IMG/VR virus record: IMGVR_UViG_3300025168_000308
Span: 1-34,158 of that record
Strand: one strand, 5' to 3'
DNA from: a virus
Length of the DNA: 34,158 nucleotides
Made by a program: the position numbers and the translations under genes. A model generated the notes under the pieces. That model made no database searches. It worked only from the letters and a program-made list of their open reading frames with translations, and had not been told where the DNA came from. Of this stretch, positions 5,560 through 28,677 are shown in pieces (position 1 is the first letter of the stretch; every line of letters begins with the position of its first letter).

Positions 5560-5568
5560 GATAAAACA

Positions 5569-9598: not shown

Positions 9599-11707
9599 AT
9601 GCCCCTGACCAAACTCCAGTTCAAACCCGGTATTAACCGAGAAGTCACCTCATACACCAATGAGGGCGGATGGTTTGACATGGACATGGTTAGGTTTCGT
9701 TTTGGGTTCCCCGAGAAAGTGGGCGGTTGGTCTAAGTTTACTAACGTTAATTTTCTCGGGTCCTGCCGAGCTTTGCACTCATGGAAAGCTTTAGACGGCA
9801 CTGATTTTATCGGGGTTGGAACCAACTTAAAGTACTATATTTTAGAGGGGCAACAGTTCTACGACATTACTCCTATTCGGCTTACGTCGAGTGCGGGGGA
9901 TGCTACTTTTGCTACCGGGGCTGACACGCTAAATGGTGCAATATCCGCAGTTTCTGAAACTATTGTAATAGACAGTGCTACGGGGTTTCCTGCGTCTGGA
10001 AGAGTAAAAATAGGCTCTGAAGAAATAACTTATGCTTCTATTTCCAGCGTTACGTTAAATGGTTGCGCTAGAGGCCAAAACGGAACAACAGCAGCGGCGC
10101 ATGCGGACGGTGCGGCAATAGCGTGTTGCACGATTACGGTTACGGAAAATGACCACGGCGCATTAGACAGTGATTTTGTGACATTTACAGATGCGGCGTC
10201 TTTGGGTGGTTTAATTACCGCGGCGGTTCTTAACCAAGAGTATCAAATTACAACAATTGTTAGTTCCAACGCTTATCAAATAGAAGCTAGAACGGTATCA
10301 AGCATTCCATCCATTACGACAACGAATGGTTTAAACCCTACCTTTGTTTTTTGTAACGCCTCGGATAGCGGCTCTGGGGGGTCCGCGGCGGTAGCTGCAT
10401 ATCAAATTAACACCGGGCTTGACACAACAATCTCTGGAAACGGTTGGAACGCGGGCACATGGGGCCGCGGAACGTGGAATTCGGCAACTGACTTGTCTGT
10501 TTCGGGTCAGACTTTGCGCATTTGGAGCCATGATAATTTCGGTGAGGACCTCCTGATTAATCCGCGGGACGGCAATATCTTCTATTGGAATAAAACAGAT
10601 GGTACGGGTGTTAGGGCTAAATCTCTTACGGCAGTAGGGGCCACTGATCCTCCCATAGTTGCTAAAATCGTGTTAGTTTCGGACGTTTCACGGCATGTTA
10701 TTTTATTTGGTTGTAATCCAGAAAACAGCACGACCCAAGACCCGCTTTTAATCCGGTTTGGTAGCCAAGAGAGTTTGTTAACGTGGTCTGCCAGCGCTAC
10801 AAACTCCGCGGGAGACCTAAGACTTGGGTCGGGCTCTGAGATTATAGCTGCAATAGAGACAAAACAGCAGATTATGGTGTTTACGGACGTTTCTTTACAC
10901 GCGATGCAGTTTCTTGGACCCCCGTTTACCTTTGGTATTGGCATGGTATCGGACAACTTAACCATTATGGGTCCTTTGAGCGCTATTAACGTAGAGGACA
11001 AGATTTTCTGGATGGGTCAGGAAGAGTTTTACGCTTATTCTGGTGCTGTGCAGCGTTTACCTTGTACTGTGCGAGATTACGTCTTTTCGGACTTTAATTT
11101 CCTTCAAAAAGAGAAGGTTACGGCGGCTTCAAACACTGCTTTTGGGGAGATTTGGTGGTTTTATCCTTCGGGTTCTAGCGAAGAAAACGACCGATATGTT
11201 GTGTTTAATTATCAGCAAAACCTTTGGTATTATGGAAATATGGGGCGAACCGTGTGGTTAGACCGCGGTATTAACGCCGATCCGATTGCGGCTTCAGCCG
11301 ATCACTACCTTTACGCTCAAGAAACGGGCTTTGACGACGGCAGCACGGTTCCTGAAACGGCTATTTCGGCGTATATTGAGAGTAGTCAAATAGACATGGG
11401 TGATGGGGATCACTTCCTGTTTTTAAGCCGTTTAGTGCCTGATATGACCTTTATGAACTCCACTGCGTCGGCTCCTTCGGCCACTATGACGCTTGAAACC
11501 CGCAATTATCCGGGCGGTTCTTACCTTCAGTCTCAAGCACAAGCGGTTACTAGAACGGCTACGGTTCCTATAGAACAGTGGACAAATGTGATTAATGTAA
11601 GGCTTCGGGGGCGGTCGTTTTCGTTTAAAGTGTCTTCCTCGGATGAGGGGGTAGGCTGGCGGTTAGGTACGCCTCGTGTTGATTTAAGACCTGACGGGAG
11701 AAGGTAG
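9599..11707 (+). CDS. Tail nozzle/hub-like protein (possible P22 gp10 counterpart)
   Basis: 702 residues. It begins LQFKPGINREVTSYTNEGGW, then FDMDMVRFRFGFPEKVGGW, a pattern known to me from marine phage structural proteins. Residues about 100-175 form an Ig-like module ending in NGCARGQNGTTAAAHADGA. Near residue 282 is the Trp motif GWNAGTWGRGTWN. The second half (PLLIRFGSQESLLTWSASAT; GMVSDNLTIMGPLSAINVED) looks like a beta-propeller or nozzle as in P22 gp10. It would form the tail tube end through which DNA and internal proteins pass. The stop overlaps the next start by one base. The assignment to gp10 is by context and pattern, not by search. Confidence 0.65.
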   Translation: MPLTKLQFKPGINREVTSYTNEGGWFDMDMVRFRFGFPEKVGGWSKFTNVNFLGSCRALHSWKALDGTDFIGVGTNLKYYILEGQQFYDITPIRLTSSAGDATFATGADTLNGAISAVSETIVIDSATGFPASGRVKIGSEEITYASISSVTLNGCARGQNGTTAAAHADGAAIACCTITVTENDHGALDSDFVTFTDAASLGGLITAAVLNQEYQITTIVSSNAYQIEARTVSSIPSITTTNGLNPTFVFCNASDSGSGGSAAVAAYQINTGLDTTISGNGWNAGTWGRGTWNSATDLSVSGQTLRIWSHDNFGEDLLINPRDGNIFYWNKTDGTGVRAKSLTAVGATDPPIVAKIVLVSDVSRHVILFGCNPENSTTQDPLLIRFGSQESLLTWSASATNSAGDLRLGSGSEIIAAIETKQQIMVFTDVSLHAMQFLGPPFTFGIGMVSDNLTIMGPLSAINVEDKIFWMGQEEFYAYSGAVQRLPCTVRDYVFSDFNFLQKEKVTAASNTAFGEIWWFYPSGSSEENDRYVVFNYQQNLWYYGNMGRTVWLDRGINADPIAASADHYLYAQETGFDDGSTVPETAISAYIESSQIDMGDGDHFLFLSRLVPDMTFMNSTASAPSATMTLETRNYPGGSYLQSQAQAVTRTATVPIEQWTNVINVRLRGRSFSFKVSSSDEGVGWRLGTPRVDLRPDGRR

Positions 11708-12055: not shown

Positions 12056-12074
12056 AGTTTTGAAGGGGTTTAAG

Positions 12075-13535
12075 ATGCAGCAACAAATGGTACTTCCAGA
12101 AGGTGGTTTAGCCTCTTTCCTTACGTCTAACTTAGACGAGATGGACGACAGCCGCCTTGCTTTTGGCTCCCAGAACGGCATTAACTCCATGCGGGAAACC
12201 GCAGAACGCATGGCTAAAATGGGCCGTGGCGGCGACGATGTTATCATTCACGCAAAAACAAGAGAACGTTTGATTCCTCAAGAAGTAAGTGACGGCAACC
12301 CTGAACTTATGTCTCAAGTAGATATCGCTATCGCCAACGCGGGCGCTGATCCTTCGGCATATATTATTGGCAGCGAAACAAACTCAGTAAACCCTTACAC
12401 AGGACAGCGGGAGTTCTTCTTAAAGAAGCTTATCTCCGGTGTTAAGAACGTGTTTAAGAAGCTTGCCCCGATTATTGTGCCTATAGCGCTTAACTTTATA
12501 GCACCGGGGTTAGGTTCTATAGCTTCGGGCTTTATTGGCAGCGGAATTACTGCATTGGCTCAAGGCAAGAACTTTAAGGAATCGTTAAAAGCGGGCCTTA
12601 TAGGCGGCGTACTGGGCGGTATTAGCTCTGGAATGAAGGGCGTTATGGCGAAAGGCGAGGGCGTAAAAGGAAATATGTTTGAAAGGTTTGGGCAAGGCTT
12701 TGAACAAGGGGCGCTTCCAGACCTTAGCGACGGTGCGAGTTCTATGTTTAAGCTTGGAAAAGCGGAAGGCAGCACCCTGTTTGGCAAGCCGTATGATGTA
12801 GAAGCGGGCAACAAAGCCATAGCCGGGGGCAACACTCCCGTGATGGATAAACTTAGTGGGACGTTTTACAACGATCCCGTCGCTGCCGTTGGTCCAGACG
12901 TACAGGGCGCAGTTAATACCTTAAACGCTACTGGAAAACCGTTTGAGATGGCGGACGCTATAACTCTCGCCAACCAGAGCGTTACTGCGGCCGTTCCGGG
13001 CAGCATAAAATATATACCTACTATTGCCGCTGGTTCTGCTCTTGCCTACGGCTTGGGAGCTTTTGATGAAATTGAGCCTGAAAAAGTAGACGATCCATAT
13101 GACAGCGCTTCGGCCTCTGAACGGCGTCTTGCTAATTTCCCTAGAAGGTACAGCACAGATACTCCTATAGCTGGTATGGGCGCTAATATGGACGACGTAA
13201 TGGTTCCTTACTATGGGGAGCAAATGGCTCAACCTACGGTACAAGTTGCTCAATCTTTGGAAGAGCAGTATCCTGATCTTTATAAGCAATACTTAGCAGA
13301 AAATCAAACTCAATTTGCCGCGGCGGGCGGTCCAATGGAATCCTTCCCACGCCGGACAGGTTATATCGCGGGCCCCGGAACAGAGACTTCTGACGATATC
13401 CCAGCGATGTTGTCTGACGGAGAGTTTGTAATGAATGCAAAGGCCGTCCGCGGTGCGGGTAACGGAAGCAGAGAGCAGGGAGTTCGTAACATGTACCAGA
13501 TGATGCGAGCTTTTGAAGGGGGTGCAGTAGCATGA
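12075..13535 (+). CDS. Ejection-type internal virion protein with hydrophobic tract
   Basis: 486 residues from ATG 12075, chosen because GAAGGGG ends six bases upstream; an in-frame TTG at 12060 lies before that site and is rejected. The N-terminus has PEGGLASFL, then GGDDVIIHAKTRERLIPQE. Residues about 129-186 (APIIVPIALNFIAPGLGSIA and onward) are hydrophobic and glycine-rich, and a second such tract is near 311-330, suggesting membrane interaction. Residues 438-460 carry TSDDIPAMLSDGEFVMNAK, known to me from phage tape-measure and internal proteins, and the chain ends FEGGAVA. It is likely an injected or internal protein. ATGA overlap with the next gene. Confidence 0.6.
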   Translation: MQQQMVLPEGGLASFLTSNLDEMDDSRLAFGSQNGINSMRETAERMAKMGRGGDDVIIHAKTRERLIPQEVSDGNPELMSQVDIAIANAGADPSAYIIGSETNSVNPYTGQREFFLKKLISGVKNVFKKLAPIIVPIALNFIAPGLGSIASGFIGSGITALAQGKNFKESLKAGLIGGVLGGISSGMKGVMAKGEGVKGNMFERFGQGFEQGALPDLSDGASSMFKLGKAEGSTLFGKPYDVEAGNKAIAGGNTPVMDKLSGTFYNDPVAAVGPDVQGAVNTLNATGKPFEMADAITLANQSVTAAVPGSIKYIPTIAAGSALAYGLGAFDEIEPEKVDDPYDSASASERRLANFPRRYSTDTPIAGMGANMDDVMVPYYGEQMAQPTVQVAQSLEEQYPDLYKQYLAENQTQFAAAGGPMESFPRRTGYIAGPGTETSDDIPAMLSDGEFVMNAKAVRGAGNGSREQGVRNMYQMMRAFEGGAVA

Positions 13536-14908: not shown

Positions 14909-17900
14909 ATGAACGTTCCAAACAGATACAAAGGCTTTTCTCAGTTGCCTGAAAACGTGCAACAGCGCATGGACCCTTCTTTGGCTAATAAGTACCAGAT
15001 GGGTGGCTCTGTTATGCAGCGTCCGTTGTTTAGGCAAATGGGCGGTCCGACTGACATGATGCCACAAGATATGATGCCGCCACCTCCGATGGGTGGCGCT
15101 CCAATGCCCCCTCCTCCGATGGCTCCCCCTCCGATGGGCGTAGACCCTGCTATGGAAGCGCAATTGATGGACGCCGAGAACACGGGTCAGCAAATTGGCG
15201 CACAGTTCTCTGAAGATATGATGATGAATTTGGAAGGCGCAGAAGACTATCAGTCTTTGATTGACGGGATTCGAGGCAACCAGCTTCCTATAGATGCTCG
15301 TTATCAAGAGCTTGCGGGTTACGTTGGCGAGCAAGACGCCATGGCAACACCGGAATCGGTTTTAGCCTTAACTCAGCCTACTATAATGATGACTGAGCAG
15401 GGTGCGATGGACAGCGGCATTGGTGAGTTGATGCAAGGTATTGCTGGTGACGTACCGATGGAAGGTCCGATGGACGAGGGCGTTGGCGCACTCATGGCGG
15501 CGGGGGCGGGAAACACACCACCCGTAAATTTTAGGAATGGCGGACCTGTAGAGGTCCGCGGTTACTCCAACGGTGCCGCAGTTAGCTCGGGCGGCGGAAG
15601 TCGAATTATGGCGCAGGCCGAAAGAGACGCTTCAGGTTACGAGAAATACTTTGCAGGCGGCTTAGACCAAGAAGCGCGGGCCGCGGCCCTTGCGGAGCAA
15701 AACGAGATGGCGAAGGCTCAGATGTTGTTTGACATTGCGGGCACTGCTTTAAACTTTGCAGGCAATACGCAAGGCAATACTATTGCGGAGCGCTTGGCTA
15801 ATGCCGCGGCACAAACTCAGTTAACCGACAAGATCGGAGCGCGGTCCGCGGGCATTTTGACTGCGAAACAATCGCAGGCGGCCGAAGAACGTCAGCTTCG
15901 CATGGCCGCTAGGCAGGCCAGCTTGAATCAGGCTCAAGCTGACGACACGTTTAGAAAAAACTTAGAATTAGCGTCAGCTAAAAAATCGGCAGGTACTCCA
16001 AAATTTGAAACTTTATATAACGTAAATGGGGAAGGAAACCTGACCGGGCAAGGCACTAGATACGATTTAACAGACCCTCTTTCATTGACTAGGTATAACG
16101 CCGCTCTTAGAACAGGAAAATATCGGGACGCAACAACCGCTGCCCCGTTCCTTGCGGCTTTGGGTGAAGAAATAAAACCTCAAGAGCTTACTCAAGTGCA
16201 AGTTACGGCCCCTATAACTGTTGATGGTTACACTTATAAAATAGGTGAGATTGCCAATCTCACTCCGAGACAAAAACAAGACAATGCTAGAAAATGGAGC
16301 GCTGTTCCCGAAAAAGTTGAGTTTGTAACTCTTAATAAAGGTACAGAAACCAAGCTAGTTATTACAAATGCTCCGGGGTCTGGAAAAACTCTTCAAACGT
16401 TATCTGACCTAGGCTGGAGTACAAGCACTTTAGAAGGGGAAACAGCCGCTAAGAAAGAGATTATCAGCTTTACACAAGGCTTTAACAAAGACGCTCAAGC
16501 CCGCTTGTTTGCGAACCAAAAAGAACTTGCAGGAATGTCCGACAAAACAACCCGAAGAGGTCAGGACCTGCAAGAACAGATTGCAAGGGATGGAAGAGAG
16601 CTTCAAAAAACTTTACAAGACAACAGGCAGCTATTTACAACTGGTCGAGATCAGACGTTGCAGGGTTATAAGACGGCCCTTAAATCTTACAGCGCTACTA
16701 TTGACAAAGATTTGCTGGCTCTCAAAGGCCAACAAGGCGTTGAAATTGAAAAACTTAGAGCCGAACTTAGGGATCAAAGCTCTAAAGTTTCATCTGAACT
16801 TAGTTTGGCTAATCAACTTTCTGTTGCGAAGGTTAAGCGCAGCTATGAGATTGAGCGCCTTACTACAACAAATGAACGGTCAATTGAGATTGAAAAACTT
16901 AGGTCCGCGTTAGGCGATGCTTCACGACAAGATCAAAACGTTTTCAAAGCGGCCGAATCGCTACTTAATAGAGTTGCAGATACAGAAGGTCTTTTAAGTC
17001 AACAAGAATGGAAAAACATTCAAAACGAACTTGATCGTAATTTTAAAGGCACGGAAGCTGAGAAAAAAGCTGCGGCACTTCTTTTACAGAACATTGCAAA
17101 AAACAACATGACCGCAGAGGGCTTAGACCTGCAAGAAGCAAGAGACCTTGTTTCGAAAGCTAAGGGTGAAGCCAAAACTATTTTGGACAGAGAGCGCTTT
17201 GAACTTGAGAAAGCAGAGGAGCCGTTGCTTGCCGCTAAAGGCACGGACGCTACGATCAAAGCGCTTTCAGATCAAGACAAGCTAGACAGATACGCTACTA
17301 ACACAATGCCCGCTACTGAGGCTAATCAGTTTGACATGATTATAGAATATTGGGCAAAGAAACAAAGCGAGAAGTGGTCTAGTGCTGCAAATGATGGCCA
17401 AGGGGGCTATGTTCCTAGTGCTTTAACTCTTGGACCAGCTTTGAAAAAGGCAATCGCGGCCCGCGTAGCTATACTTGGACAGGAAAACGTTCCTGATTTA
17501 AGTAATGCATCTAATTTTGTTGTGAGAGGAGCGCCGGGAAGCGTTGCGGCATATGCGTTTAACGAAGACGGAACAGTGAATCCGGACTCATTTAACTCAG
17601 ATAATACACTGATAATTTCGGGTGTTGACTTGTCAAAGTCTCAGGGCATAGCTTCGGGCTTTAACCGTGTGTTTAAAAACATAGGTTCGTTTATTAAAGA
17701 AATCTCACTTGGGTTTTTTGATACGGAAGGTGGCCCTTCTAGTAAAGTTGGTGTTACTAGAAGGGCTGACGCTGAATTAGACGCTTTAGCAAGAAAAACT
17801 ATTGAACTTGGAAGATCGGGCGTAGAAGGAAAAGTTTTTGCTTTAGATGTTAAACTTTTAGAAGAAGAAGTTAAGAACTTTAAGGCTTCGGCTTTTGGTA

Positions 17901-18193
17901 CAGACCGAGGGGCTTTGGATCAACTGTATGTTACAAGGGCTTCAATGGCGGCACAGTTTGGAGCTATTGTAGATGTTCTAAATGGTGGAACTAAAGGAGG
18001 TTATACGGAACTCCAAGTAACCACAGCTAGAGCAACGAAGCCAAAACTAGAAGAATTGTTAGGCGAGTATACCGCAGCAATTCTTATATATGAGCGGTCT
18101 TTGGATTCTTCTTCAAGCGCTGAAGCAAGCACCGCCAGCGACCAAGTTCAAACGGGGGGTTCTTTGACACGCGATGCTGGAAGAGTTAATTAA
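14909..18193 (+). CDS. Large internal virion protein with Met/Pro tract and long coiled coil
   Basis: 1,094 residues. N-terminal YQMGGSVMQRPLFRQMGGP leads into a Met/Pro tract (residues 50-80, PPPPMGGAPMPPPPMAPPPM). Residues 128-195 hold ARYQELAGYVGEQDAMATPE and MMTEQGAMDSGIGELMQGI, a block known to me from marine phages. Further FRNGG and YFAGG motifs flank a helical region (240-350), a beta-like middle (430-505) and a long coiled coil (about 515-690, KLRAELRDQSSKVSSELSLA). No enzymatic motif is credible; NAPGSGKT near residue 490 is not a P-loop. Length and composition fit an ejection protein or one bound inside the head. Separated from the next gene by its AGGGGGG ribosome site only. Confidence 0.65.
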   Translation: MNVPNRYKGFSQLPENVQQRMDPSLANKYQMGGSVMQRPLFRQMGGPTDMMPQDMMPPPPMGGAPMPPPPMAPPPMGVDPAMEAQLMDAENTGQQIGAQFSEDMMMNLEGAEDYQSLIDGIRGNQLPIDARYQELAGYVGEQDAMATPESVLALTQPTIMMTEQGAMDSGIGELMQGIAGDVPMEGPMDEGVGALMAAGAGNTPPVNFRNGGPVEVRGYSNGAAVSSGGGSRIMAQAERDASGYEKYFAGGLDQEARAAALAEQNEMAKAQMLFDIAGTALNFAGNTQGNTIAERLANAAAQTQLTDKIGARSAGILTAKQSQAAEERQLRMAARQASLNQAQADDTFRKNLELASAKKSAGTPKFETLYNVNGEGNLTGQGTRYDLTDPLSLTRYNAALRTGKYRDATTAAPFLAALGEEIKPQELTQVQVTAPITVDGYTYKIGEIANLTPRQKQDNARKWSAVPEKVEFVTLNKGTETKLVITNAPGSGKTLQTLSDLGWSTSTLEGETAAKKEIISFTQGFNKDAQARLFANQKELAGMSDKTTRRGQDLQEQIARDGRELQKTLQDNRQLFTTGRDQTLQGYKTALKSYSATIDKDLLALKGQQGVEIEKLRAELRDQSSKVSSELSLANQLSVAKVKRSYEIERLTTTNERSIEIEKLRSALGDASRQDQNVFKAAESLLNRVADTEGLLSQQEWKNIQNELDRNFKGTEAEKKAAALLLQNIAKNNMTAEGLDLQEARDLVSKAKGEAKTILDRERFELEKAEEPLLAAKGTDATIKALSDQDKLDRYATNTMPATEANQFDMIIEYWAKKQSEKWSSAANDGQGGYVPSALTLGPALKKAIAARVAILGQENVPDLSNASNFVVRGAPGSVAAYAFNEDGTVNPDSFNSDNTLIISGVDLSKSQGIASGFNRVFKNIGSFIKEISLGFFDTEGGPSSKVGVTRRADAELDALARKTIELGRSGVEGKVFALDVKLLEEEVKNFKASAFGTDRGALDQLYVTRASMAAQFGAIVDVLNGGTKGGYTELQVTTARATKPKLEELLGEYTAAILIYERSLDSSSSAEASTASDQVQTGGSLTRDAGRVN

Positions 18194-18210: not shown

Positions 18211-21200
18211 ATGATGGCCGACAATAACGTTGAATTAGACCCTACCGGGGCAAACGTAGAAGAATTTATTGGAACTACGGACGTGCCTTCACTCGTGTCT
18301 GTTCCAAAGGAGCCTGCGACTTTTAAGCAAGTTTATATTAACAAAGTTATTTTAACCCCTGAACTAATGAACACGGCTCGCGATCTTTTTCCTCAAGCAA
18401 AACAGGAAGCTATAGAGGCGGGAGATATGTCATTTCCCCGGACTTCAGGCGGGTTTCTTGCAAACGACCTAGTAGATACCATGCGCGTGGATTTTAAGGA
18501 TCGGCTTGCAGAAGACCCTAATTATATTACATACGAAAGCTTGAGAAACGGGACGGCGACAATACTAGACGAAATTGAGATTTACGCTGGAAAAAGCCCA
18601 AAAGAACGTATGTTAACAGATGACGACATTGCTAAAATATTTAGCAATGCAGAGGATGCGCCGTTTGCTCGTGCTTTCTTTGGAGAACTAGCGAAAACAG
18701 TTCCCGCTTTACAGGCCGGAATGTCAACTACGGCTTTGACCGCGGGGAAACTTTATTCAAAACCGCTTTTTCCAGTTGGAACTCCTTTAAGCGGTGCGGA
18801 GTGGCTTGGTAAAACGGTTGCGGCTCTTGGGACGGGTGTTGCTGTGGGTTTTGGCGTATATAGCGCTGCTGATGCAATTGAAGAAGGTTTTTTAGGTCCC
18901 GATCCAGTAGTTGTTCCCGGACAGCGGGCCGCGTATGAGGCTTTTAGAACCGCGGGCGGCGGTGCTGCAAACATCCTTTTTCCGTTTATGTTATCGCGAT
19001 ACACCGTAGACAGTGGAGCAAGGTTTGTTTTAGATAATCTTGCAAGAAACATAAAAGGCCCTATTGGTTTACGCATACAGGCCAGTTTAGATGAAATGTT
19101 GGCAGGTTCAGCAAGATTAGCCACGGGCTCTCGGACCGGAGCAATAAGCACGGCGATTGTAGAGAGTGGCGGCGCACTGGGCTCCGCGGGGGCAGCTTAT
19201 CTAGCAGAGGATGCCAATGTTGGAACGGGTGGAAGGCTGCTTTCTGAGTTTATCGGAGGCAACATAGGAGCTTTGACCGTCTTAAAAGCTCTTCCAAAAG
19301 CTTTAACGTCCCTTACAGACGCGGGCGGGGTCGAAGGAATTACAAGCTCCATTGGAGACGCTCGTCAAAAGAAAGTTTTTTCAAAAATAAGCGAGCTTTA
19401 CCAAAAATTTGGTGACCAATCTCAGTACGACGAATTGTTAGAAAATTTAACCAGCCCAGCATTTAAGGCAGAAATGGAGAAGGCTTTTCCGGGCGTTGAC
19501 TTTAGTGTTGGGCAACGGTCGGGAGACCCGTTGTTCATGGCTTTAGAGGCTTCGCGGTCGGCAAAGAGTGAAGACCTTAGCGCCGCTCGCAAGAAGTCCG
19601 AAAGATTAGCGTTTGAAGCAACAAACAACTTTATAAAAGCTTTGACCGCGGAAGGTTCAGAAGCTTCATTAAATGCTGCGGCTCAGTTGCGAAAGTCTTT
19701 GTTTGACGAAGCGGTTCAAAACAACATTAGTGTTCCACTAGCCCGACTTGCTAAGTCTATAGCGCAACTAAAAAAACTTCCCGTAGTAGATGGTGATCCA
19801 ACCGTTATTGCAGGATTAAGTCCGGCCGCTCTTTCCAAAAAATTAACAGACGTTTTAGAAAACCAACTCTTTACCGTGATGGGCGCTAAAGAACGCGCGT
19901 TGTACACAGCCGCGGGAGCAAGGGACCACGTTGTTTATGATCTTTCTGAAGGTGTCCCAGAATTTATTAAGGTGTTCGACGAAATATCTTATTTAAACCC
20001 GTCTGTTCAAGCCGAGTTTGAAAAATCAATGCCCGAGATTGCGCTTTTTATTAAACAAGCAAAAAGAGATTTAGGTTTAGACGTTGAAGGCGGGGAGAGT
20101 TTTAACCTTACAGCTTTGCAATCGGAAGTAGACCAAACTACAGAAATTCTTTCTAAATATGTTCCAGTGGATCGTAGAAAAGAAAGGGGCGTGGATTATC
20201 AAGTTTTTGATTTTGAAGATTTTAATATCAGTCTTTCATTTATGAAAAATAGTTTTAAAGAAAAAAACCTGTCTTTCGACGAGCAAGCAGACATTTTTGA
20301 AAAAGTTGCTAAAGATAAACTTTCTTTATCCGAAAAGATTAACGACGGTGCTAGTGCGACACCCAGCATGGCGAAAGAATCTCGTGAGGCATACGCAAAC
20401 GTCTTGCTGGCGGAAGCAGGACTTGCAAGGGCCAAAGCTACGCGTGGGATGGTCGGTGACGAAGCCGAAGCTGTTGTTATAACCGCTGGAAAAATAGATG
20501 AAATCCGAAGCCGCGCGTTAGCACTGGGCAGAGAGTTTACAAGCGGGCTTTACCCTGCAAAATCTGACTATGGAAGACGGCTTGGGCAGCTTGCAAACTC
20601 TTTGAGAGAAGGCTTGGATGCTGTTGAAGGAGGTGCGCCGGAAGCTTACAAAAACGCACTTGCTTTTACTAGGGCTAAACACGACGTGGTTAGCCGAATG
20701 GTTAACGCAAAGGCTAAGTCTAGTTTGAGAAGTGGCGCAAGGGCCATAGACCCTGAAATTCAGTTTAGTACTTATATTAACGCAAATCCTAGCGTAACGT
20801 TAGGCCGGACTCGACAACTTCAAGCCTTGGCGCAATTTGCGGACGATCAAGACTTGGCTTCATATGCCCTTGAGGCTGGAGTTGAACCGGGTGTAGACCC
20901 CGTTTTTACAACTATAAACAACCTTACAGACGCTTATTTGAGGAAAACTCAAATAGACAAGGTTATTACAAAAAAATTCGACTCTACTTTAAACAGGGAA
21001 GTAATAGAGGTAAACGATCAAAAGTTAGCTGAGTGGAGAGACGCTAATTCAGATTTGTTGGAAGCTTTTCCACAGATAGATATTGATACAGCAGATGCTG
21101 TAACTTTTCAAAGGTCTTTAGAGTTTAAACAAGCTCGTAAAGCCAAGCTAGATAAGAAAGGGTTGGTCCAACAACAACTGGGTTCTCTTTTAAACGGCAG

Positions 21201-22389
21201 GTCTCCAACCGAAGCAATCGGAGAAGCTTTTGAGGCCGCACAACCTGCGGACGCTATGCGAAAGCTGTTTAACATTAGAAGAGTAGCCGCAGACTTCACT
21301 ATAACCGGGGGTAGAACCCGGTCTCGTGTTAAACTGGGAACTCCTAAACCCAACTCAAGAACGGCGCTAATTCAAGAGGCCGGATTAAAAGTTAAAGACG
21401 TGAACGAAGGGTTTCGGACCGCTATCTTGCAACAAGCAATGATGCGGGCTGGAGGAGAAGTTGGAGGTAAAAACAAAACCTTTGACCCAAAAACGTTTCA
21501 CGAGTTTTTGTTTAAGCCTATGGGCAAGTCTAATCAGGTTTCCGTTGCAGACCTTGCCTTAAAAAACGATATATTTACAGAGGGCCAGTTTAAACGGTTA
21601 AAATTTATGTCTACTCAGATGGTTAGAATTCAAGCTGCGGACGCGGCAGGAAGACTAAAAGACCCTGATTTTGCCGATGAGGCGGGTGCTATAGTAGATT
21701 TTTACTATTCTGTTGTGGGATCGGCGTTAGGTTCCGCAGCTTACAGTGCAACTTCAAGTGTCCTTCCTATTTCGGGTAGCGCCGGACAATTGGCGGCGTC
21801 TTCTGCGGGCGCTAAATATATAAGAACAATTATGCAATCAATTCCGGCTGTGCAGAACTTGGAAACTTTGGATCAAGCGTTTATGGACGCAGAACTTGTC
21901 AGCAAGCTTTTGCGTAGACCTACAAATGCTGCTGATGCCGAACGTCAAAGGTTTTCCGTTGGAAACCATCTAAAAGAAATGTTCTTTACAAAAGGCGCAA
22001 CGATAGGCCGAGAGATGATTCCGTTTGTGGCTAGGGAAACTTTTGAGGAAGACGACAACACGGTTGAAGCGCCGTATCTAGGATTTCCGGGCTTTCCAGA
22101 AAACGCAGAAAAAAATCGTCAACAGTACATTGACCGTATTCGGCGCAACCTTCCTCCCAACGATCAGCAGGGGGCTTTTGTTCCACCGTCTAATTTTCCC
22201 GCGAGACCTTCGCCTGTGGTATCTCCCACCACGCAGGCGTCGGCCGTACCTAGTCCTGCCCCGGCTCCAATTAATTCTGGTCCGGTAGACAGAACTAGGT
22301 ACGCAGCCCTATTCCCAAATGATTCGATTTCCGGTATGATGAAAACACAAATGTTGTCCCGCGGCGGCATTGCAAGTTTGATGAGGTAA
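18211..22389 (+). CDS. Giant internal virion protein (ejection-type) with hydrophobic segments
   Basis: 1,392 residues, the largest in the window. AGGGGGG (18201-18207) precedes ATGATG; the second ATG (18214) has the better spacing. Residues about 150-400 hold several hydrophobic, Gly/Ala-rich helices (VPALQAGMSTTALTAGKLY; GKTVAALGTGVAVGFGVYSA; GAISTAIVESGGALGSAGAA), with another near 1,160-1,210 (GSALGSAAYSATSSVLPIS). The rest is helical and charged. A Pro/Ser/Ala tail precedes RTRYAALFPNDSISGM and the end MLSRGGIASLMR. It resembles very large ejected proteins that build a DNA channel across the cell envelope; pore formation is inference. Tape measure is less likely with no long-tail genes nearby. 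Confidence 0.65.
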   Translation: MMADNNVELDPTGANVEEFIGTTDVPSLVSVPKEPATFKQVYINKVILTPELMNTARDLFPQAKQEAIEAGDMSFPRTSGGFLANDLVDTMRVDFKDRLAEDPNYITYESLRNGTATILDEIEIYAGKSPKERMLTDDDIAKIFSNAEDAPFARAFFGELAKTVPALQAGMSTTALTAGKLYSKPLFPVGTPLSGAEWLGKTVAALGTGVAVGFGVYSAADAIEEGFLGPDPVVVPGQRAAYEAFRTAGGGAANILFPFMLSRYTVDSGARFVLDNLARNIKGPIGLRIQASLDEMLAGSARLATGSRTGAISTAIVESGGALGSAGAAYLAEDANVGTGGRLLSEFIGGNIGALTVLKALPKALTSLTDAGGVEGITSSIGDARQKKVFSKISELYQKFGDQSQYDELLENLTSPAFKAEMEKAFPGVDFSVGQRSGDPLFMALEASRSAKSEDLSAARKKSERLAFEATNNFIKALTAEGSEASLNAAAQLRKSLFDEAVQNNISVPLARLAKSIAQLKKLPVVDGDPTVIAGLSPAALSKKLTDVLENQLFTVMGAKERALYTAAGARDHVVYDLSEGVPEFIKVFDEISYLNPSVQAEFEKSMPEIALFIKQAKRDLGLDVEGGESFNLTALQSEVDQTTEILSKYVPVDRRKERGVDYQVFDFEDFNISLSFMKNSFKEKNLSFDEQADIFEKVAKDKLSLSEKINDGASATPSMAKESREAYANVLLAEAGLARAKATRGMVGDEAEAVVITAGKIDEIRSRALALGREFTSGLYPAKSDYGRRLGQLANSLREGLDAVEGGAPEAYKNALAFTRAKHDVVSRMVNAKAKSSLRSGARAIDPEIQFSTYINANPSVTLGRTRQLQALAQFADDQDLASYALEAGVEPGVDPVFTTINNLTDAYLRKTQIDKVITKKFDSTLNREVIEVNDQKLAEWRDANSDLLEAFPQIDIDTADAVTFQRSLEFKQARKAKLDKKGLVQQQLGSLLNGRSPTEAIGEAFEAAQPADAMRKLFNIRRVAADFTITGGRTRSRVKLGTPKPNSRTALIQEAGLKVKDVNEGFRTAILQQAMMRAGGEVGGKNKTFDPKTFHEFLFKPMGKSNQVSVADLALKNDIFTEGQFKRLKFMSTQMVRIQAADAAGRLKDPDFADEAGAIVDFYYSVVGSALGSAAYSATSSVLPISGSAGQLAASSAGAKYIRTIMQSIPAVQNLETLDQAFMDAELVSKLLRRPTNAADAERQRFSVGNHLKEMFFTKGATIGREMIPFVARETFEEDDNTVEAPYLGFPGFPENAEKNRQQYIDRIRRNLPPNDQQGAFVPPSNFPARPSPVVSPTTQASAVPSPAPAPINSGPVDRTRYAALFPNDSISGMMKTQMLSRGGIASLMR

Positions 22390-22395
22390 GTAGCT

Positions 22396-24177
22396 ATGAT
22401 GAACAACATGTCACAAGGGCTCGGTTCGTTTAACAACATGATGCCTCAGAACAACATGCAGCAAAACCCTTATGGCCAACAGATGAACCCGCAGATGATG
22501 GGTCAACAGGTTCGCTCACCAGAGATGTTCAGCGAACAGCTAATGAACCCGATGATGCCTCAGATGCAAGACCCGTTGCAGGGCTTACAGCCGATGGCCG
22601 AGCCAGAGGGCTTTGGCGTTTACGGTCAGTCTTTATCTGGCTTCGCGGACGGCGGTGCGGCATCCAGTGGCGGCGTTCCTCGTGAGACGGTGATTGGTGG
22701 CCAGCCTCACATGTTGGCTTATATTAATCCTGAAGAGGAGCAGATGCTTTATGCCGCTGGCGGTTCGGGCGAGCCGGGTCCGGGCGGCATTCCTGCTTTT
22801 ATTCCTGACGATGGAAATCGCGGCTCCTCCTACGCGCCCAGAACTTCCCCGCGCCCAAGAGCGCGGCCCGCGGACCTTTCTTCTTCAATGCGTCGGGCCA
22901 GTAGTCAGTCCGCGGCTGAACTAGCTTATATGGCTCGGGCTAGGAGGGCTGCTCAACAATCCACGGCTGGTCAACAGGCCGAGGCTAATATAGCTACTCA
23001 ACAGGCGGCTGTTAAAAAACAAGCGGCTCAACAAGCCGAGGCTGATCGTAGACAAGTTTTGTCAGACCAACGTCTCGCGGATCAACAAAGGGCTCAACAA
23101 GGAACGGGTATTGCAGGTTTGGGCGGTCAGGGTGGTATGAGTACACCCGTAAACGTCTCCTATAACAATCCGGGCACAGGCCTGTCCGCCGACCGCCGCG
23201 CTTTAATAACTCAGGCTTTACAAAACACTCCTGTTAACCAGCGTGATGGGGTAATGAAGGCGCTGTTAGAATTACAAGGGCCTCCAGTAGATAACGAGAC
23301 CATCCCTAAGACCGTTTCTTTTCCCGGGGGGAATGTTGTTGGCGGAACCGTACCTACTGCCGCAACTGTTGGCGGTTCCGCCGCGGAAAAACTTGCCGGG
23401 TACAGAAAAAACACGCCCAACACCTTTAGAGAATTCTTAGCAAATGCGTTAACTCCGGGTGACCAAATGAAGTATGTAAACGGTCTATTGGTGTATGGGG
23501 ATAACCATCCAAACGCTGGTCAGCCCGTTCCAGAAGACGCCACAAATTCATTTGGACTAAAGGTAGGGATGGGCAACAGCGTAGGAAACGACAATCCGGG
23601 TGCAGGAAATTTCGCTAACTCTGGAGAAGCGCAGGCCGCGAACCAAGGTGGCCTACCCGGAATTCCCGGCGCTATTGCGGGTACTTTGGGAAAGGGTATG
23701 GCCTTTCTTGGGGGCATACGACCTACAGATGTTGAGGTAGGCCGTGGCGCAGATGGCCTACAGATTTTTCAGACAGAAGGCGCTTTTGGCGGGGCCGGAA
23801 ATTTTTATGTAATTGACCCAATGACGGGTTTAGTTCGCAATGTTAAAGGTGCTAACGATTCAACCTCTCCACTTGTAGACATGAGCCAGATGATGGACGA
23901 CGCCAGTAGCAACAATTCTGCGGAAGAACTGGCCTACGTTGCTAATCTTCAAGCCGAACAGGATGCTATTAATAACCCTGTGGTAGATGATCCTTACTCT
24001 CCAACTCCTTTAACAAGAGCGGGAACTGGAATGGGCTCTAATGTTGGCACTATTTACGACACGGGAAATACGATAGTTGAATCCGGTACAAATCCTTTTG
24101 CCCAAGGAAACCAAGTTGGTGCGCTTACTTTTGAAGAGCTAATGCGGCTTAACCAGCAACAAAATCGTATTCTTTAA
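22396..24177 (+). CDS. Met/Asn/Gln-rich internal virion protein
   Basis: 593 residues. Residues 1-65 are extremely Met/Asn/Gln/Pro-rich (NNMMPQNNMQQNPYGQQMNP). FADGG at 83-87 and YAAGG near 119-123 bracket VPRETVIGGQPHMLAYINPE, a stretch I recall from other phage internal proteins. Residues about 160-240 are an Ala/Gln/Arg helix (AELAYMARARRAAQQSTAG). The rest is glycine-rich with no catalytic motif. Starts at ATGATG 22396 after the TAAGTAG double stop; the stop overlaps the next start by one base (TAATG, 24175-24179). It is grouped with the ejection set by composition, shared Gly-Gly motif and position. Confidence 0.65.
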   Translation: MMNNMSQGLGSFNNMMPQNNMQQNPYGQQMNPQMMGQQVRSPEMFSEQLMNPMMPQMQDPLQGLQPMAEPEGFGVYGQSLSGFADGGAASSGGVPRETVIGGQPHMLAYINPEEEQMLYAAGGSGEPGPGGIPAFIPDDGNRGSSYAPRTSPRPRARPADLSSSMRRASSQSAAELAYMARARRAAQQSTAGQQAEANIATQQAAVKKQAAQQAEADRRQVLSDQRLADQQRAQQGTGIAGLGGQGGMSTPVNVSYNNPGTGLSADRRALITQALQNTPVNQRDGVMKALLELQGPPVDNETIPKTVSFPGGNVVGGTVPTAATVGGSAAEKLAGYRKNTPNTFREFLANALTPGDQMKYVNGLLVYGDNHPNAGQPVPEDATNSFGLKVGMGNSVGNDNPGAGNFANSGEAQAANQGGLPGIPGAIAGTLGKGMAFLGGIRPTDVEVGRGADGLQIFQTEGAFGGAGNFYVIDPMTGLVRNVKGANDSTSPLVDMSQMMDDASSNNSAEELAYVANLQAEQDAINNPVVDDPYSPTPLTRAGTGMGSNVGTIYDTGNTIVESGTNPFAQGNQVGALTFEELMRLNQQQNRIL

Positions 24178-27100
24178 TGGAGCAGCTTAAACGTTTACAA
24201 CTTATGGAACGTGAAATGATTTCTGATGGGAAATCAGCTTCGGAGATTGACGGTGCTAAAGCCCGCATTCGCCAGCAAGCTTATTCCGGAATACCTCCTG
24301 AGCTTAACGGCGTCGGGTCTTTAAGCGAAACGGCGCGGAATATGAACCGCGGCCCGCGGGGCATTGCCGCTTACATGGCGGAAGGCGGAGAAGCCGAGGA
24401 AGAAGTCTATGATGCAGGTGGTCGGTTTCAATTTGACCAAAACATGCAAGAACCTTCTATCGTTAGTTTTTTAAGAAAAATGTTTAACCGGGACACTTAC
24501 GATACTTCTTTAGAAAAGGCCCGCAAGATAAAAGCAGGGGAAATGCCCACAGGTTATGAACCCCCCGGTGTACGACTCTCTCGTGAGTTCATAGGAATGA
24601 CTCCTATTGGGACTGCGGAAACGGGGGTCGCCATGTATGACGAGTTTAACCAAGATGACCCCAACTACTTAAAACTAGGAATTATGGGAGCAGGGGAACT
24701 GGCGGGTTATATTCCTTTGGCGGGTCCACCTATTAAAAAAATGATTCGCGGCGGTAGAGGAAATGTTCCGATTAACAAGAATGTTTTTGATGATTCCGAA
24801 GAAATTATTGAAGTGTATCATGCGACTCCTAACGCTCCTTTTGAAAAATTAGACGCAAACATGTCAGATTTAAACAAAGATGGAGCTTTTGGGCCGGGAG
24901 ATTATTTTTCGTTAGATAGCAGGTATCCGTCACAATTTGTTGGTGGAAGAGGAAGTTTATTATCTGCAAAAGTTGATGTTTCAAGAATGCTGGATGCTAG
25001 GTTGGGGGGCAAGCCGTTTACTTCAGATCAAACAGAAGGTTTAATAGAAGCTCTTTCTCGTAGAACAGACTTAGATGGAAAAAATTTAACGGTTGTAAAA
25101 AAAGATGACGTGTTGTCTGTTTCTTATGTAAGAAGACCTCTTTTTTCTGGTGAGCCGTTGGCAGACCGCAGATTAGTTCAAAGAATCCCTCTTAGAAATG
25201 CGGAAGAGGCTTTTAAAAAAATTAAAGAAATAACTAATAATATTAAAAACCCCCTTCAAAAAGATGCAGATGGATATGCCCTCGTTAGAAACAATTCAAC
25301 TAATACGGAAAATTTAAAAGATGTTTTAAGTGAATCGGGTTTTACTGGCGTAGTGGGTGTACAAGAAGCAAGTAGCGGTGGAAAAAGTAATTTAGTTGTA
25401 TTTGATAATTCGGTTTATAAAGATGGTGGCAAACTCGATACTGTAATAGATCAGGGAGTTATTCCAGAAGACATAGGGTTTTCTGCGTCACGATCCGCAG
25501 ACGAGTATACAGCCGGAAACGATGCTAAAATAGTTGAAAATTACAGAAGACGTTTAGAGAAGGAAAACGTTTCCCCCCCGGGGTCTCCGGACTTTCGTAC
25601 TTCTGAAGACATTGAACTTCTTGTACAAAACTTTGCTAGGCAACGATCACAAAAATACGCAGACGGAGGCGAAGTTATGGAAGGCATTGGTTCTTTAAAC
25701 GAAACCGCACGAAACATGACTCGCGGACCGCGGGGCCTTAACTCTTTGCAACGTTTTGCTGAAGGCGGAGAACTAAACGTTAATTTACAACCTCTTGATT
25801 TGCCCGTTGATGGCCGTATGTCATACACTAAAACAGACGACGGGGGGATGTTTGACAGTGAAGTAAGCAAAACGTTTGAGGGGGGCCTTGGATCGCTAAC
25901 TCCTTCTTTTGATTATTCTACTCAAAACAGTTCTAGAGACATGGGCGACGTGGTTATAGATGAAAACGGCGAACAGATAGGCTTTGCCGTAGAGGGTGAA
26001 TTGTTTTTAAACTCAGACCCTGACAGTGAAGACAAGGTTCGCGGAGCATTTGAAGTAGAAAAATCTCGTAACAACACAAATTTCACGTTTCCAGAAGGGG
26101 AGTTTGTGCGGACTAATGAGGGTCTTTTAAAACGGTTTAATCTTGGAATGGATTTAGGGCGCTTTGGGTTAGATTTAAACCGCATGGAGGGCTCCGGTAG
26201 AGAGCCTGTAAATTCTGGGTCAGCTACTATTAGAATTGGCGAAAACGGTATTGTTAGATACAGTGATTCTGACCGAGGTGAACCGACTATTGGGTTTAAT
26301 TATGCCAGAGAGTTCGCGTCTGGCGGACCTGTTTATATGAAAAACGGGGGAGAATCGTCGGAAGCTAAAGCTAGAAAGGATGTTTTAAACACCATTTACG
26401 AAATTGAGTCCAACTCAAATTATGACCAATGGAATTTAAAGGCAAAAAACCCTCCTGAAACACCTTTAAGCTCTTTGACAATTCAAGAAATAATGGATTT
26501 TCAAGGTGATGAAAACGGTCCCGCGGCGGGCGCAGGTCAAATTAAATACAATACTTTTAAATACTTGATTAAAAGTGGCGTACTTTCTCCTGACGATGTT
26601 TTCTCTCCGGAAAACCAAGATGCGGCAAACAGCCGTTTACTTGACCGAAGAGGTTTTGTTTCGTGGTTTAACGGAGACATTTCAACGGAAGAGTTTGGGT
26701 CAGACGTAGCCAAGGAATGGGCTTCTCTTCCACTGCTTGAAAGCAGGGATGTTTCAGGGGGGAAAAAGGAAAGAGGTGATTCTCGTTACGGGGGATCAAA
26801 CAAGGCTCTTGTCGGGGCGGACTATTGGCAAGAGGCTTTAGACTCGGCAAAAGTCTCTCAACCTACAGTGGTTGCAAGTGCCGATACATCTGGAATTGCA
26901 ACTTTCTTACCCCAGACAGAAACGCGGGCCACGCAGCCTCAACCCGTTTCCTATGTCCCAAACTTTCAAGGGTTTCAAATGCAGCCTTCTCAAGCCTCTT
27001 CCATGCCGGGGCCGCTTGAACCTGAAAGACCTCCGGTAGAAGAAGCAAAACAATACGCCAGCTTGTATGAAAAATACACCCCGCAAGCTATGCAGGATGC

Positions 27101-27254
27101 TTTGCAGGGACTTGGTTATTTCAACAGTCCTACGGGACCTTCTGGTTATCAACAGTTCGCTTCTGGCGGCGAAGCTTTAGGACCGCCCCCGTTACGCGGA
27201 CCGGACCCACAAGGCATTGGCGCTTATCAACAGTTTAACGCAGCCAACCGCTAA
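24177..27254 (+). CDS. Multidomain virion protein: ADP-ribosyltransferase-like + beta domain + lambda-type lytic glycosidase
   Basis: 1,025 residues. Order: GVGSLSETARNMNRGPRG motif (45-62) with MAEGG; hydrophobic stretch (168-185); ART-like domain (about 208-418) with H215 in EVYHATP, Y243 in GPGDYFSLDSRY and the closing strand NLVVFDNSVYKD (405-416); second GIGSLNETARNMTRGPRG motif (503-520) with FAEGG; beta-rich domain (533-712); FASGGPVYMKNGG (713-725); a lysozyme-like domain (about 731-890) with E744 in TIYEIESNSNYD, AAGAGQIK (783-790), FSPENQDA (809-816), WASLP (848-852), as in lambda endolysin; Pro/Gln tail ending in two GYQQF/AYQQF copies. Probably a virion wall-cutting enzyme plus a host-modifying domain. 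It overlaps the minus-strand helicase by 20 bases. Confidence 0.7.
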   Translation: MEQLKRLQLMEREMISDGKSASEIDGAKARIRQQAYSGIPPELNGVGSLSETARNMNRGPRGIAAYMAEGGEAEEEVYDAGGRFQFDQNMQEPSIVSFLRKMFNRDTYDTSLEKARKIKAGEMPTGYEPPGVRLSREFIGMTPIGTAETGVAMYDEFNQDDPNYLKLGIMGAGELAGYIPLAGPPIKKMIRGGRGNVPINKNVFDDSEEIIEVYHATPNAPFEKLDANMSDLNKDGAFGPGDYFSLDSRYPSQFVGGRGSLLSAKVDVSRMLDARLGGKPFTSDQTEGLIEALSRRTDLDGKNLTVVKKDDVLSVSYVRRPLFSGEPLADRRLVQRIPLRNAEEAFKKIKEITNNIKNPLQKDADGYALVRNNSTNTENLKDVLSESGFTGVVGVQEASSGGKSNLVVFDNSVYKDGGKLDTVIDQGVIPEDIGFSASRSADEYTAGNDAKIVENYRRRLEKENVSPPGSPDFRTSEDIELLVQNFARQRSQKYADGGEVMEGIGSLNETARNMTRGPRGLNSLQRFAEGGELNVNLQPLDLPVDGRMSYTKTDDGGMFDSEVSKTFEGGLGSLTPSFDYSTQNSSRDMGDVVIDENGEQIGFAVEGELFLNSDPDSEDKVRGAFEVEKSRNNTNFTFPEGEFVRTNEGLLKRFNLGMDLGRFGLDLNRMEGSGREPVNSGSATIRIGENGIVRYSDSDRGEPTIGFNYAREFASGGPVYMKNGGESSEAKARKDVLNTIYEIESNSNYDQWNLKAKNPPETPLSSLTIQEIMDFQGDENGPAAGAGQIKYNTFKYLIKSGVLSPDDVFSPENQDAANSRLLDRRGFVSWFNGDISTEEFGSDVAKEWASLPLLESRDVSGGKKERGDSRYGGSNKALVGADYWQEALDSAKVSQPTVVASADTSGIATFLPQTETRATQPQPVSYVPNFQGFQMQPSQASSMPGPLEPERPPVEEAKQYASLYEKYTPQAMQDALQGLGYFNSPTGPSGYQQFASGGEALGPPPLRGPDPQGIGAYQQFNAANR

Positions 27255-28677
27255 CGTCCTCTTTTAGCACCTGACCCGCTAGATCAATCTTACTGCGCAG
27301 CGCGTTCAACACCTTCTCATCTATGGTGTTGGGCGACACAAGATCAATATAAGTTACAGCATTCTTCTGCCCGATCCGGTGAGCGCGGTCCTCGGACTGT
27401 AGTCTTATCTCAAGGTCGTAAGAGTTACTGTAATAGATCACGGTGTTGGCCGCCGTCAGAGTGATGCCATAGCCGCCTGTCTTAGGCTGCCCCACAAAGA
27501 AACGCAGCGGATCATCGTCGTCTTGGAAGCGGTTAACAATCTCTTGACGTTCGTCTTGCGGCGTTGCTCCGTAATAAAGTGCGACCGAATCGGGCCCGAA
27601 ACGGTCGCGCAGGGTCTGGCAAATCTGTTGGATATCGTGAGTGTACGAAGCCCAAATGATTGCCTTCCCTGATAGTTCATCTGTAATGCTCATTAGTTCA
27701 TTCAGACGGTTGTTCTTTAGCTTCTGTATCTTTCCAACGTCGGGCTGGAAGAAACCGCAGCAAATCTGTTGTAGGCGCATTATTTGCGTCAAGACACTTT
27801 CTGTCGTCGCAAGCTCCCCGTTCTCAAGCTGTGCAAGAGCCAGCTTCTTCATCTGCCCGTAAACCTTGGCCTGCTCGTCGGTCAGTTCTACGTTGCGCCG
27901 AGTATAAATTTTGTCTGGGAGGTCTAGGCAGTCTTCTTTCAAAACTCGGGTGGAGAAGGTAAACAACTTCTCGTTTAACTCGTCTAGTCGGCGGTATCCC
28001 GTTATCTCTTGAAAACTCCGCGCTCCCATCACACGTTTCTGGACTATAGCGTACCTGTTCTGAAAAGCAAAGAAACTGTTATAACCAAGCGCCCGTTCGT
28101 CTAAGAAGTTGCACTGGCTAAACAAATCCATTGGGCTTTTGGTAACAGGAGAGCCTGTTAGTATGCGGCGGTACTTACTGTACTTCGTTAACACCATCAG
28201 GTTCTTTGTGCGTTGCGCCTTGCGGTTCTTGATAGTCGTGCTTTCGTCAATAACCATCATGTTGTCAGGGTTCTGCACTAGAAAACGCCCCGCGGCCCGC
28301 GCACCTCTGGGAGAGGAAAACGCTTCGACATTCATTACAAATATTTTAAGACCGTCGTAGTCTTCCATTATTAATTCTTCTAGTTCTGCGGCAAACTTCT
28401 TGCTTGAAGAGGGCGTCCAGCTTACTATCCTACGCTCAATTCGCTCTGGCATATGCAAGGGAATTTCGCCCAGCGCCCAGTTGTCATACACACCTTTAGG
28501 AGCCACGATTAACGCGGCCTTTATTTCGCCTTTTTCAAAAAGAACACCAATGTTATCTATAGCGACTTTACTCTTGCCCGTACCCATTTCCATGAAGTAC
28601 GCATGAAAGCTCGCGGACCACGAATCTTGTAAAGCTTTCCGCTGATGCTCGAACGGTTCTGTTTTATATTCGTACAA
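27235..28677 (-). CDS. SNF2-type superfamily 2 helicase
   Basis: 480 residues, with all main motifs: Walker A MEMGTGKS (29-36, K35), motif II VIDEST (142-147), motif III ILTGSPVT (172-179), motif V GGYGITLTAANTVIYY (401-416) and motif VI QSEDRAHRIGQK (427-438). It is a compact two-lobed SNF2-like DNA translocase or helicase typical of phage replication and recombination modules. The start is TTG at 28675-28677, supported by AAAGGA six bases upstream and an in-frame TAA just before it; the next in-frame Met would delete the P-loop lead-in. It is the only minus-strand gene, converging with the virion block (20-base overlap) and diverging from the replication genes. Confidence 0.85.
   Translation of the reverse strand: MYEYKTEPFEHQRKALQDSWSASFHAYFMEMGTGKSKVAIDNIGVLFEKGEIKAALIVAPKGVYDNWALGEIPLHMPERIERRIVSWTPSSSKKFAAELEELIMEDYDGLKIFVMNVEAFSSPRGARAAGRFLVQNPDNMMVIDESTTIKNRKAQRTKNLMVLTKYSKYRRILTGSPVTKSPMDLFSQCNFLDERALGYNSFFAFQNRYAIVQKRVMGARSFQEITGYRRLDELNEKLFTFSTRVLKEDCLDLPDKIYTRRNVELTDEQAKVYGQMKKLALAQLENGELATTESVLTQIMRLQQICCGFFQPDVGKIQKLKNNRLNELMSITDELSGKAIIWASYTHDIQQICQTLRDRFGPDSVALYYGATPQDERQEIVNRFQDDDDPLRFFVGQPKTGGYGITLTAANTVIYYSNSYDLEIRLQSEDRAHRIGQKNAVTYIDLVSPNTIDEKVLNALRSKIDLAGQVLKEDVSGWLR

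What the first reader, a model, noticed from the sequence alone, without database searches (positions are those of the whole stretch)
24177..27254. One virion-type chain joins an ADP-ribosyltransferase-like domain to a lambda-endolysin-like domain
Within 1,025 residues there are an ART-like region (about 208-418: EVYHATP, GPGDYFS, NLVVFD strand) and a lytic glycosidase-like region (about 731-890: E744, AAGAGQIK, FSPENQDA, WASLP), separated by a beta-rich domain and repeated linkers. Known precedent: T4 Alt is a virion ART injected with DNA, and some phages carry virion wall hydrolases. Joining both in one long protein at the end of an ejection-protein block suggests it cuts the cell wall on entry and then modifies a host target. 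That combined role is inference.
Basis: partly seen in the sequence, partly recalled or inferred. Interest (0 to 1): 0.85.

Follow-up and report, generated by a model that had tools for sequence, protein, structure and literature searches.

The report
Swappable effector-plus-wall-cutter phage ejection protein
The last protein of this marine phage's DNA-ejection gene block joins a cell-wall-cutting lysozyme to a probable host-modifying (ADP-ribosyltransferase-like) domain, and in related phages that domain has been swapped for other predicted effectors, so phages seem to exchange the payload they inject.

Summary
In detail: window 24177-27254 is one intact 1,025-aa ORF with the motifs quoted. 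The C-terminal domain (res ~725-896) is a lambda-type lysozyme: phrog_90 endolysin E=9e-10, Rhizobium-phage lysozymes E=3e-14, and a family profile that picks up solved lambda lysozyme weakly at the same motifs. The ART-like domain (res ~208-432) is probable, not proven. It has no Pfam hit of its own, and its AlphaFold model is poor (pLDDT 58, no Foldseek match). Its His/Tyr/Asp motif set matches the polyvalent-protein ARTs, and a sister phage carries a recognisable ART-PolyVal domain in the same slot of the same protein. T4 Alt is the wrong family (R-S-E, not H-Y-D). New here: this is a cassette locus. DNA alignment shows the middle of the gene replaced between near relatives at shared linkers, by ART-A, a different ART, or a ParB-like domain. 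The wall cutter also alternates between lambda-type lysozyme, SLT transglycosylase and none. The ART cassette is the lowest-GC stretch of the window, and its closest relative (80% DNA identity) sits in an HMO-2011-type phage. It is best filed as a modular 'polyvalent' injected protein: a new variant of a known kind.

The parts
24177..27254 (+). 1,025-aa multidomain ORF, last gene of the ejection block; overlaps the previous gene's stop codon and the convergent helicase gene
24177..24391 (+). N-terminal leader (res 1-72), conserved in L110 at 72% DNA identity
24309..24392 (+). linker copy 1 (GVGSLSETARNMNRGPRGIAAYMAEGGE)
24663..24752 (+). hydrophobic segment before the effector (NYLKLGIMGAGELAGYIPLAGPPIKKMIRG); similar stretch in CRP-207 gp58 and in L110; possible membrane element (inference)
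24798..25474 (+). ART-like cassette (res 208-432); putative triad H215 (24819-24821), Y243 (24903-24905), D410 (25404-25406); lowest-GC stretch of the window (36.6%)
25656..25772 (+). linker copy 2 (YADGGEVMEGIGSLNETARNMTRGPRGLNSLQRFAEGGE); cassette boundary near 25659 shared by L110, L186 and L187
25764..26300 (+). beta-rich module (res 530-708), no known family; shared with L109, L110, L111 and the ParB-bearing L186
26313..26355 (+). FASGGPVYMKNGGE linker before the lysozyme
26349..26864 (+). lambda-type lysozyme domain (res 725-896), catalytic-Glu candidate E744 (26406-26408)
27156..27251 (+). C-terminal tail with a linker-like copy (FASGGEALGPPPLRGPDPQGIGAYQQF); the same stretch precedes the SLT domain in L088-L090
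22396..24177 (+). 593-aa upstream protein of the block, also with FADGG-type motifs; no family
18211..22389 (+). 1,392-aa ejection-type protein; distant relative of the 'DNA transfer protein' of phage DSL-LC04
9599..11707 (+). virion 'stabilization'/structural protein that places the phage with DSL-LC04, CRP-901 and HTVC023P
27235..28677 (-). convergent SNF2-type helicase, used as the anchor for synteny

Best explanation
The ORF is a modular injected phage protein of the 'polyvalent' type, carried in the virion and released with the DNA. Its C-terminal lambda-type lysozyme (Glu744) opens the peptidoglycan. Its middle cassette is an H-Y-D ADP-ribosyltransferase-like effector that, once in the cytoplasm, would use NAD+ to modify a host macromolecule early in infection. 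The locus is a cassette slot: phages of this group exchange the effector, and separately the wall-cutting module, by recombination at repeated linkers. Shown by sequence: the domain order, the lysozyme family, the DNA-level cassette boundaries, and the alternative cassettes. Inferred: ART activity, packaging, ejection order and host target.
For: Lysozyme. ART-like: invariant His, Tyr-Phe-Ser and Phe-Asp in all five members including 30%-identical ones; strand N-[YFL]-[VA]-[VI]-[FY]-D shared with ART-PolyVal domains of G063 and L166; L110 carries an ART-PolyVal domain (PF18760 E=1e-4 on the fragment, 4.8e-7 per genome, below the curated cut-off) in the same slot with the same N-term, beta module, lysozyme and flanking helicase. 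Cassette exchange: window vs L110 has no DNA match over 24392-25658 between 72% and 77% matched flanks, next to an 85% matched helicase; L186 matches at 91% from 25659 but carries a ParB-like domain upstream (phrog_723 E=1.8e-6). L094 matches at 80% DNA identity only over 24798-25474, in an HMO-2011-type gene before scaffold and capsid. Cassette GC 36.6% vs median 46.8%, lowest in the window. Wall module exchange: SLT in L088-L090 and L189 (E about 1e-18 to 1e-19), none found in L186. Virion context: syntenic with the ejection block of DSL-LC04. Precedent: PMC5512222.
Against: No Pfam hit for the window's own ART-like region; best PF18760 score in its near family is E=0.096; profile-profile comparison with ART-PolyVal gives probability 7%; AlphaFold model pLDDT 58 with no Foldseek match in PDB or viral libraries. 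The family's published third residue, Asp in strand 5, could be another Asp (GYDG in some members), which is Thr390 here. No proteomics.
Confidence: 0.62

Rival explanations
1. The ART-like domain is not a working ADP-ribosyltransferase: it is a degenerate or structural domain that keeps the H / YFS / VFD skeleton, and the protein is in effect a virion lysozyme with a filler region.
For: No significant profile or fold match; the position of PARP's catalytic Glu is Asn in the window and His in L088-L090; a ~70-residue inserted region is modelled better than the core.
Against: His, Tyr and Asp stay invariant between 30%-identical members; accepted ART-PolyVal domains also have Asn at the PARP Glu position; it moves as a unit between unrelated phages and is replaced by recognised effector-type domains.
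Confidence: 0.23
2. The protein is a late lysis or tail-associated enzyme that stays outside the cytoplasm: the lysozyme serves exit or tail penetration, and the ART acts in the producing cell.
For: phrog_90 and the Rhizobium-phage homologues are annotated as endolysins.
Against: The gene ends the ejection block, next to ejection-type proteins and not holin genes; other wall-lytic domains (SLT) occupy the same place, and T7-type ejection proteins carry swappable peptidoglycan hydrolases.
Confidence: 0.13
3. The fusion is an assembly or gene-calling artefact of a metagenome contig.
For: Metagenomic source; abrupt GC change at the cassette.
Against: Three contigs encode the identical protein; L110 has the same architecture with a different ART, and L088-L090 have an ART-plus-wall-cutter order with another enzyme.
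Confidence: 0.02

Closest known systems
Phage polyvalent proteins (Iyer et al. 2017, PMC5512222)
   Same: One large late-gene product combining disparate effector domains with a lysozyme; ART, ParB-like and zincin domains are among their listed parts; predicted to be injected with DNA.
   Different: Here it sits at the end of a podoviral ejection block (HTVC023P/DSL-LC04-like), with an effector slot and a wall-cutter slot exchanged independently at repeated linkers among close relatives; the ART is a divergent subtype below Pfam detection.
ART-PolyVal (PF18760) / Tox-ART-HYD2 clade
   Same: Ordered H, Tyr-Phe and ...VFD motifs; strand N-x-V-V-F-D shared with accepted members.
   Different: No significant PF18760 score for the window domain; ~70-residue insertion; Asp of GYDG is Thr390.
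Lambda endolysin / phrog_90 endolysins
   Same: Catalytic-Glu position, AAG..Q, QD, WASLP motifs and family membership.
   Different: Embedded in a 1,025-aa ejection-block protein instead of a stand-alone lysis enzyme.
T7 gp16 / internal virion proteins with a transglycosylase
   Same: Ejection-type protein with a peptidoglycan-cutting domain that can be swapped between ejection proteins (PMC8954989).
   Different: Different glycosidase family, C-terminal not N-terminal, and with an added effector cassette.
T4 Alt
   Same: Virion-borne ART as a functional analogy.
   Different: Alt belongs to the R-S-E clade; the window domain has an H-Y-D motif set, and no lysozyme is fused to Alt.
Roseovarius Plymouth podovirus 1 N4-like virion RNA polymerase
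   Same: Marine podovirus virion protein with a PF18760 ART.
   Different: Fused to an RNA polymerase; unrelated phage group.

Membership tests
Polyvalent proteins | Two or more domains of disparate biochemical activity in one polypeptide | tested here: met
   Lysozyme plus a conserved, separately mobile ART-like domain; the second activity is predicted only
Polyvalent proteins | Late-gene context next to virion or ejection genes | tested here: met
Polyvalent proteins | Injected into the host with DNA | not testable with these tools
   needs virion proteomics and infection assays
ART-PolyVal (PF18760) | Score above the curated cut-off | tested here: not met
   no hit for the window domain; best of its near family E=0.096; so not filed as a PF18760 member
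ART-PolyVal / Tox-ART-HYD2 | His strand 1, Tyr strand 2, Asp strand 5 | tested here: inconclusive
   H215, Y243, D410 invariant in 5 of 5, but strand assignment rests on a low-confidence model
ADP-ribosyltransferase fold | ART fold | tested here: inconclusive
   AlphaFold pLDDT 57.8, pTM 0.58; no Foldseek match
Lambda-type lysozyme (phrog_90 endolysin) | Significant profile match and conserved Glu | tested here: met
   E744 conserved in at least 90% of 20 relatives
Lambda-type lysozyme (phrog_90 endolysin) | Lysozyme superfamily fold | tested here: inconclusive
   model pLDDT about 90 for this domain; Foldseek lists lysozyme-class chains at probability 0.5-0.8 but none with E below 0.001; family profile to lambda lysozyme E=0.05
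T4 Alt clade | R-S-E active site | tested here: not met
   motif set is H...Y...D
T7 gp16-type ejection protein | N-terminal SLT-type transglycosylase plus C-terminal DNA-binding region | tested here: not met
   different glycosidase at the C-terminal side; no SLT match in P0001

The most novel reading that the evidence does not exclude
The end of the ejection block is a dedicated payload slot: closely related phages carry different injected effectors (two kinds of ART, a ParB-like domain, possibly a zincin) in front of an interchangeable wall cutter, with repeated LNETARNM..GPRG..FAxGG linkers acting as recombination joints and perhaps as cleavage sites that free the effector after entry.
Probability: 0.4. 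Interest if true: 0.75.

Novelty: new variant of a known kind. Interest (0 to 1): 0.62.

Why it matters
If the slot reading is right, host-takeover effectors of marine podoviruses of this kind can be found by position alone, without detectable homology: compare the last gene before the convergent helicase across relatives. It would give a phage counterpart to polymorphic-toxin cassette exchange, with a virion lysozyme as carrier, and a tractable set of candidate host-modifying or counter-defence proteins to test. It also shows one effector module shared recently by two unrelated phage groups.

Tried and rejected
Direct Pfam, PDB-sequence and PHROG searches with the ART region found nothing. 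tblastn of the ART region against phages gave only weak serine-integrase matches at E about 0.2, dismissed as chance. Bacterial genome scans found no relative. The structure model of the ART region was too weak for fold search. The beta-rich module could not be folded. I first thought the domain had lost its catalytic Glu by analogy with PARP (Asn at that place); rejected as an argument for inactivity because accepted ART-PolyVal domains have Asn there too. An alignment mixing ART-only rows with lysozyme rows misaligned and was discarded. The T4 Alt family was rejected on its active-site class.

Full report
What is there. The window is a 34-kb virus record of a podovirus-like phage related to DSL-LC04, CRP-901 and HTVC023P; the placement rests on the 702-aa virion protein at 9599-11707. 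The finding is the last gene of its ejection block: ORF 24177-27254, 1,025 aa. Its ATG overlaps the preceding stop codon, and its end overlaps a convergent SNF2-type helicase gene. Two other metagenome contigs encode the identical protein.

The lysozyme domain. Residues 704-896 match PHROG 90 (endolysin) at E=9e-10 and lysozyme-like proteins of Rhizobium and Stappia phages (E=3e-14 for the best). E744, AAG/Q788, Q814-D815 and WASLP are conserved. A 20-member profile finds solved lambda lysozyme at E=0.05 over exactly these motifs and a '66 kDa protein' chain at 1e-7. The AlphaFold model of this part is confident (about 90), although Foldseek gave only sub-threshold lysozyme-class matches, probably because the other half of that model was disordered.

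The ART-like domain. No library recognises it in the window protein. Relatives were found by going through neighbouring genes: L088-L090 (30% identical) have the same domain in the same position before the same helicase, followed by an SLT transglycosylase instead of the lambda-type enzyme. H215, T217, G239, Y243-F244-S245, Y250-P251-S252, G388-F-T-G-V and F409-D410 are invariant across the five members (G239 is the G of FG in that alignment). One of these relatives touches PF18760 weakly (E=0.096). ART-PolyVal domains recognised by PF18760 in G063, and a sub-cut-off match in L166, share the strand N-[YF]-[VA]-[VI]-[FY]-D with the window's NLVVFD. The published active site of polyvalent ARTs is H-Y-D, which the window fits with H215, Y243 and D410; strand assignment is uncertain. 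Profile-profile comparison and structure prediction were inconclusive. I put the ART assignment at about 0.75.

The cassette slot. L110, whose helicase region is 85% identical at DNA level, has the same leader, beta module, lysozyme and tail, but a different ART that PF18760 does detect (E=1e-4 on the fragment). DNA alignment of the two shows no similarity from 24392 to 25658 and 72-77% on either side. L186 is 91% identical from 25659 through the beta module, and again in the helicase, yet carries a ParB-like domain upstream and no lysozyme. L187 shares only the linker and helicase. L112 has a HELGH motif in the slot (no family hit, so zincin is a reading of the motif) plus the lambda-type lysozyme. 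L189 and L190 carry other N-terminal parts, one with SLT and one ParB-like. The exchange points seen in L110, L186 and L187 lie at a linker of the form GIGSLNETARNM.RGPRGIGAYQQFAxGG, which also flanks the cassettes in the other relatives; in L112 and L089 the linkers are better conserved (79-96% over 24-71 nt) than the helicase beside them (68-69%).

Transfer of the cassette. L094, a fragment with HMO-2011/CRP-type genes (scaffold- and capsid-like genes follow), has the same ART-like domain at 80% DNA identity over 24798-25474 and nothing else in common with the window region. In the window that segment is the lowest-GC stretch of its size (36% against a median of 47%); in L094 it is 32% in a 33-38% GC gene. 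This fits acquisition from an AT-richer phage; direction is an inference.

How it probably works. By analogy with T7-type ejection proteins, whose peptidoglycan hydrolase is needed to enter some cells and can move between ejection proteins (PMC8954989), and with polyvalent proteins (PMC5512222), the lysozyme opens the wall during ejection and the effector reaches the cytoplasm. The hydrophobic stretch before the effector (res 163-192), which has a counterpart in CRP-207 gp58 and L110, could help membrane passage; this is speculation. FAxGG-type motifs are over-represented in held ORFs (75 against about 16 in shuffles; related sequences were not removed, so the excess is inflated) and sit at module edges; whether they are cut is unknown.

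Known or new. The principle is published. New here are the particular architecture in this phage group, a divergent ART subtype, independent exchange of effector and wall cutter at repeated linkers, and a recent transfer between unrelated phages. I found no mention of ART, lysozyme or ejection proteins in the two papers on the nearest phage groups (term search of the main text only).

Noticed in passing
window 12060-13535, 14909-18193, 18211-22389, 22396-24177, 24177-27254; also L004, L094: Short [FY]Ax-GG-type motifs recur in several ejection-block proteins and at module edges, also in unrelated HMO-2011-type phage proteins; purpose unknown (processing site, docking peptide or recombination by-product).
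   Followed up: partly
L267/L269 (G063:C1:33984-35252): A 589-aa ORF in a related phage contig holds two tandem ART-PolyVal domains (both over the Pfam cut-off) and ends with the same linker as the window protein.
   Followed up: partly
L186:4985-7381 (-): Same beta module and linker as the window protein but with a ParB-like domain upstream and no recognisable wall-lytic domain.
   Followed up: partly
L112:3190-3443 and 4300-6861: Part of the beta module lies in the preceding ORF in this relative, and the slot protein has a HELGH metallopeptidase-like motif.
   Followed up: partly
L094:3-4013: HMO-2011-type protein with an HEIQH zincin-like motif upstream of the ART-like cassette.
   Followed up: no
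window 5569-8436: Long repetitive protein with a C-terminal stretch (SDQRDKTDFTALDVGLDFVKALAPVTYKW) that resembles an intramolecular-chaperone tail-fibre end; read by eye only.
   Followed up: no
window 8439-9080: 213-aa protein in the place where DSL-LC04 and HTVC023P carry 2OG-Fe(II) oxygenase-like genes; possible oxygenase.
   Followed up: no
L115/L116:5980-10284: A 1,435-aa ORF begins with the same lambda-type lysozyme domain (res 4-172), another large lysozyme fusion in a different context.
   Followed up: no
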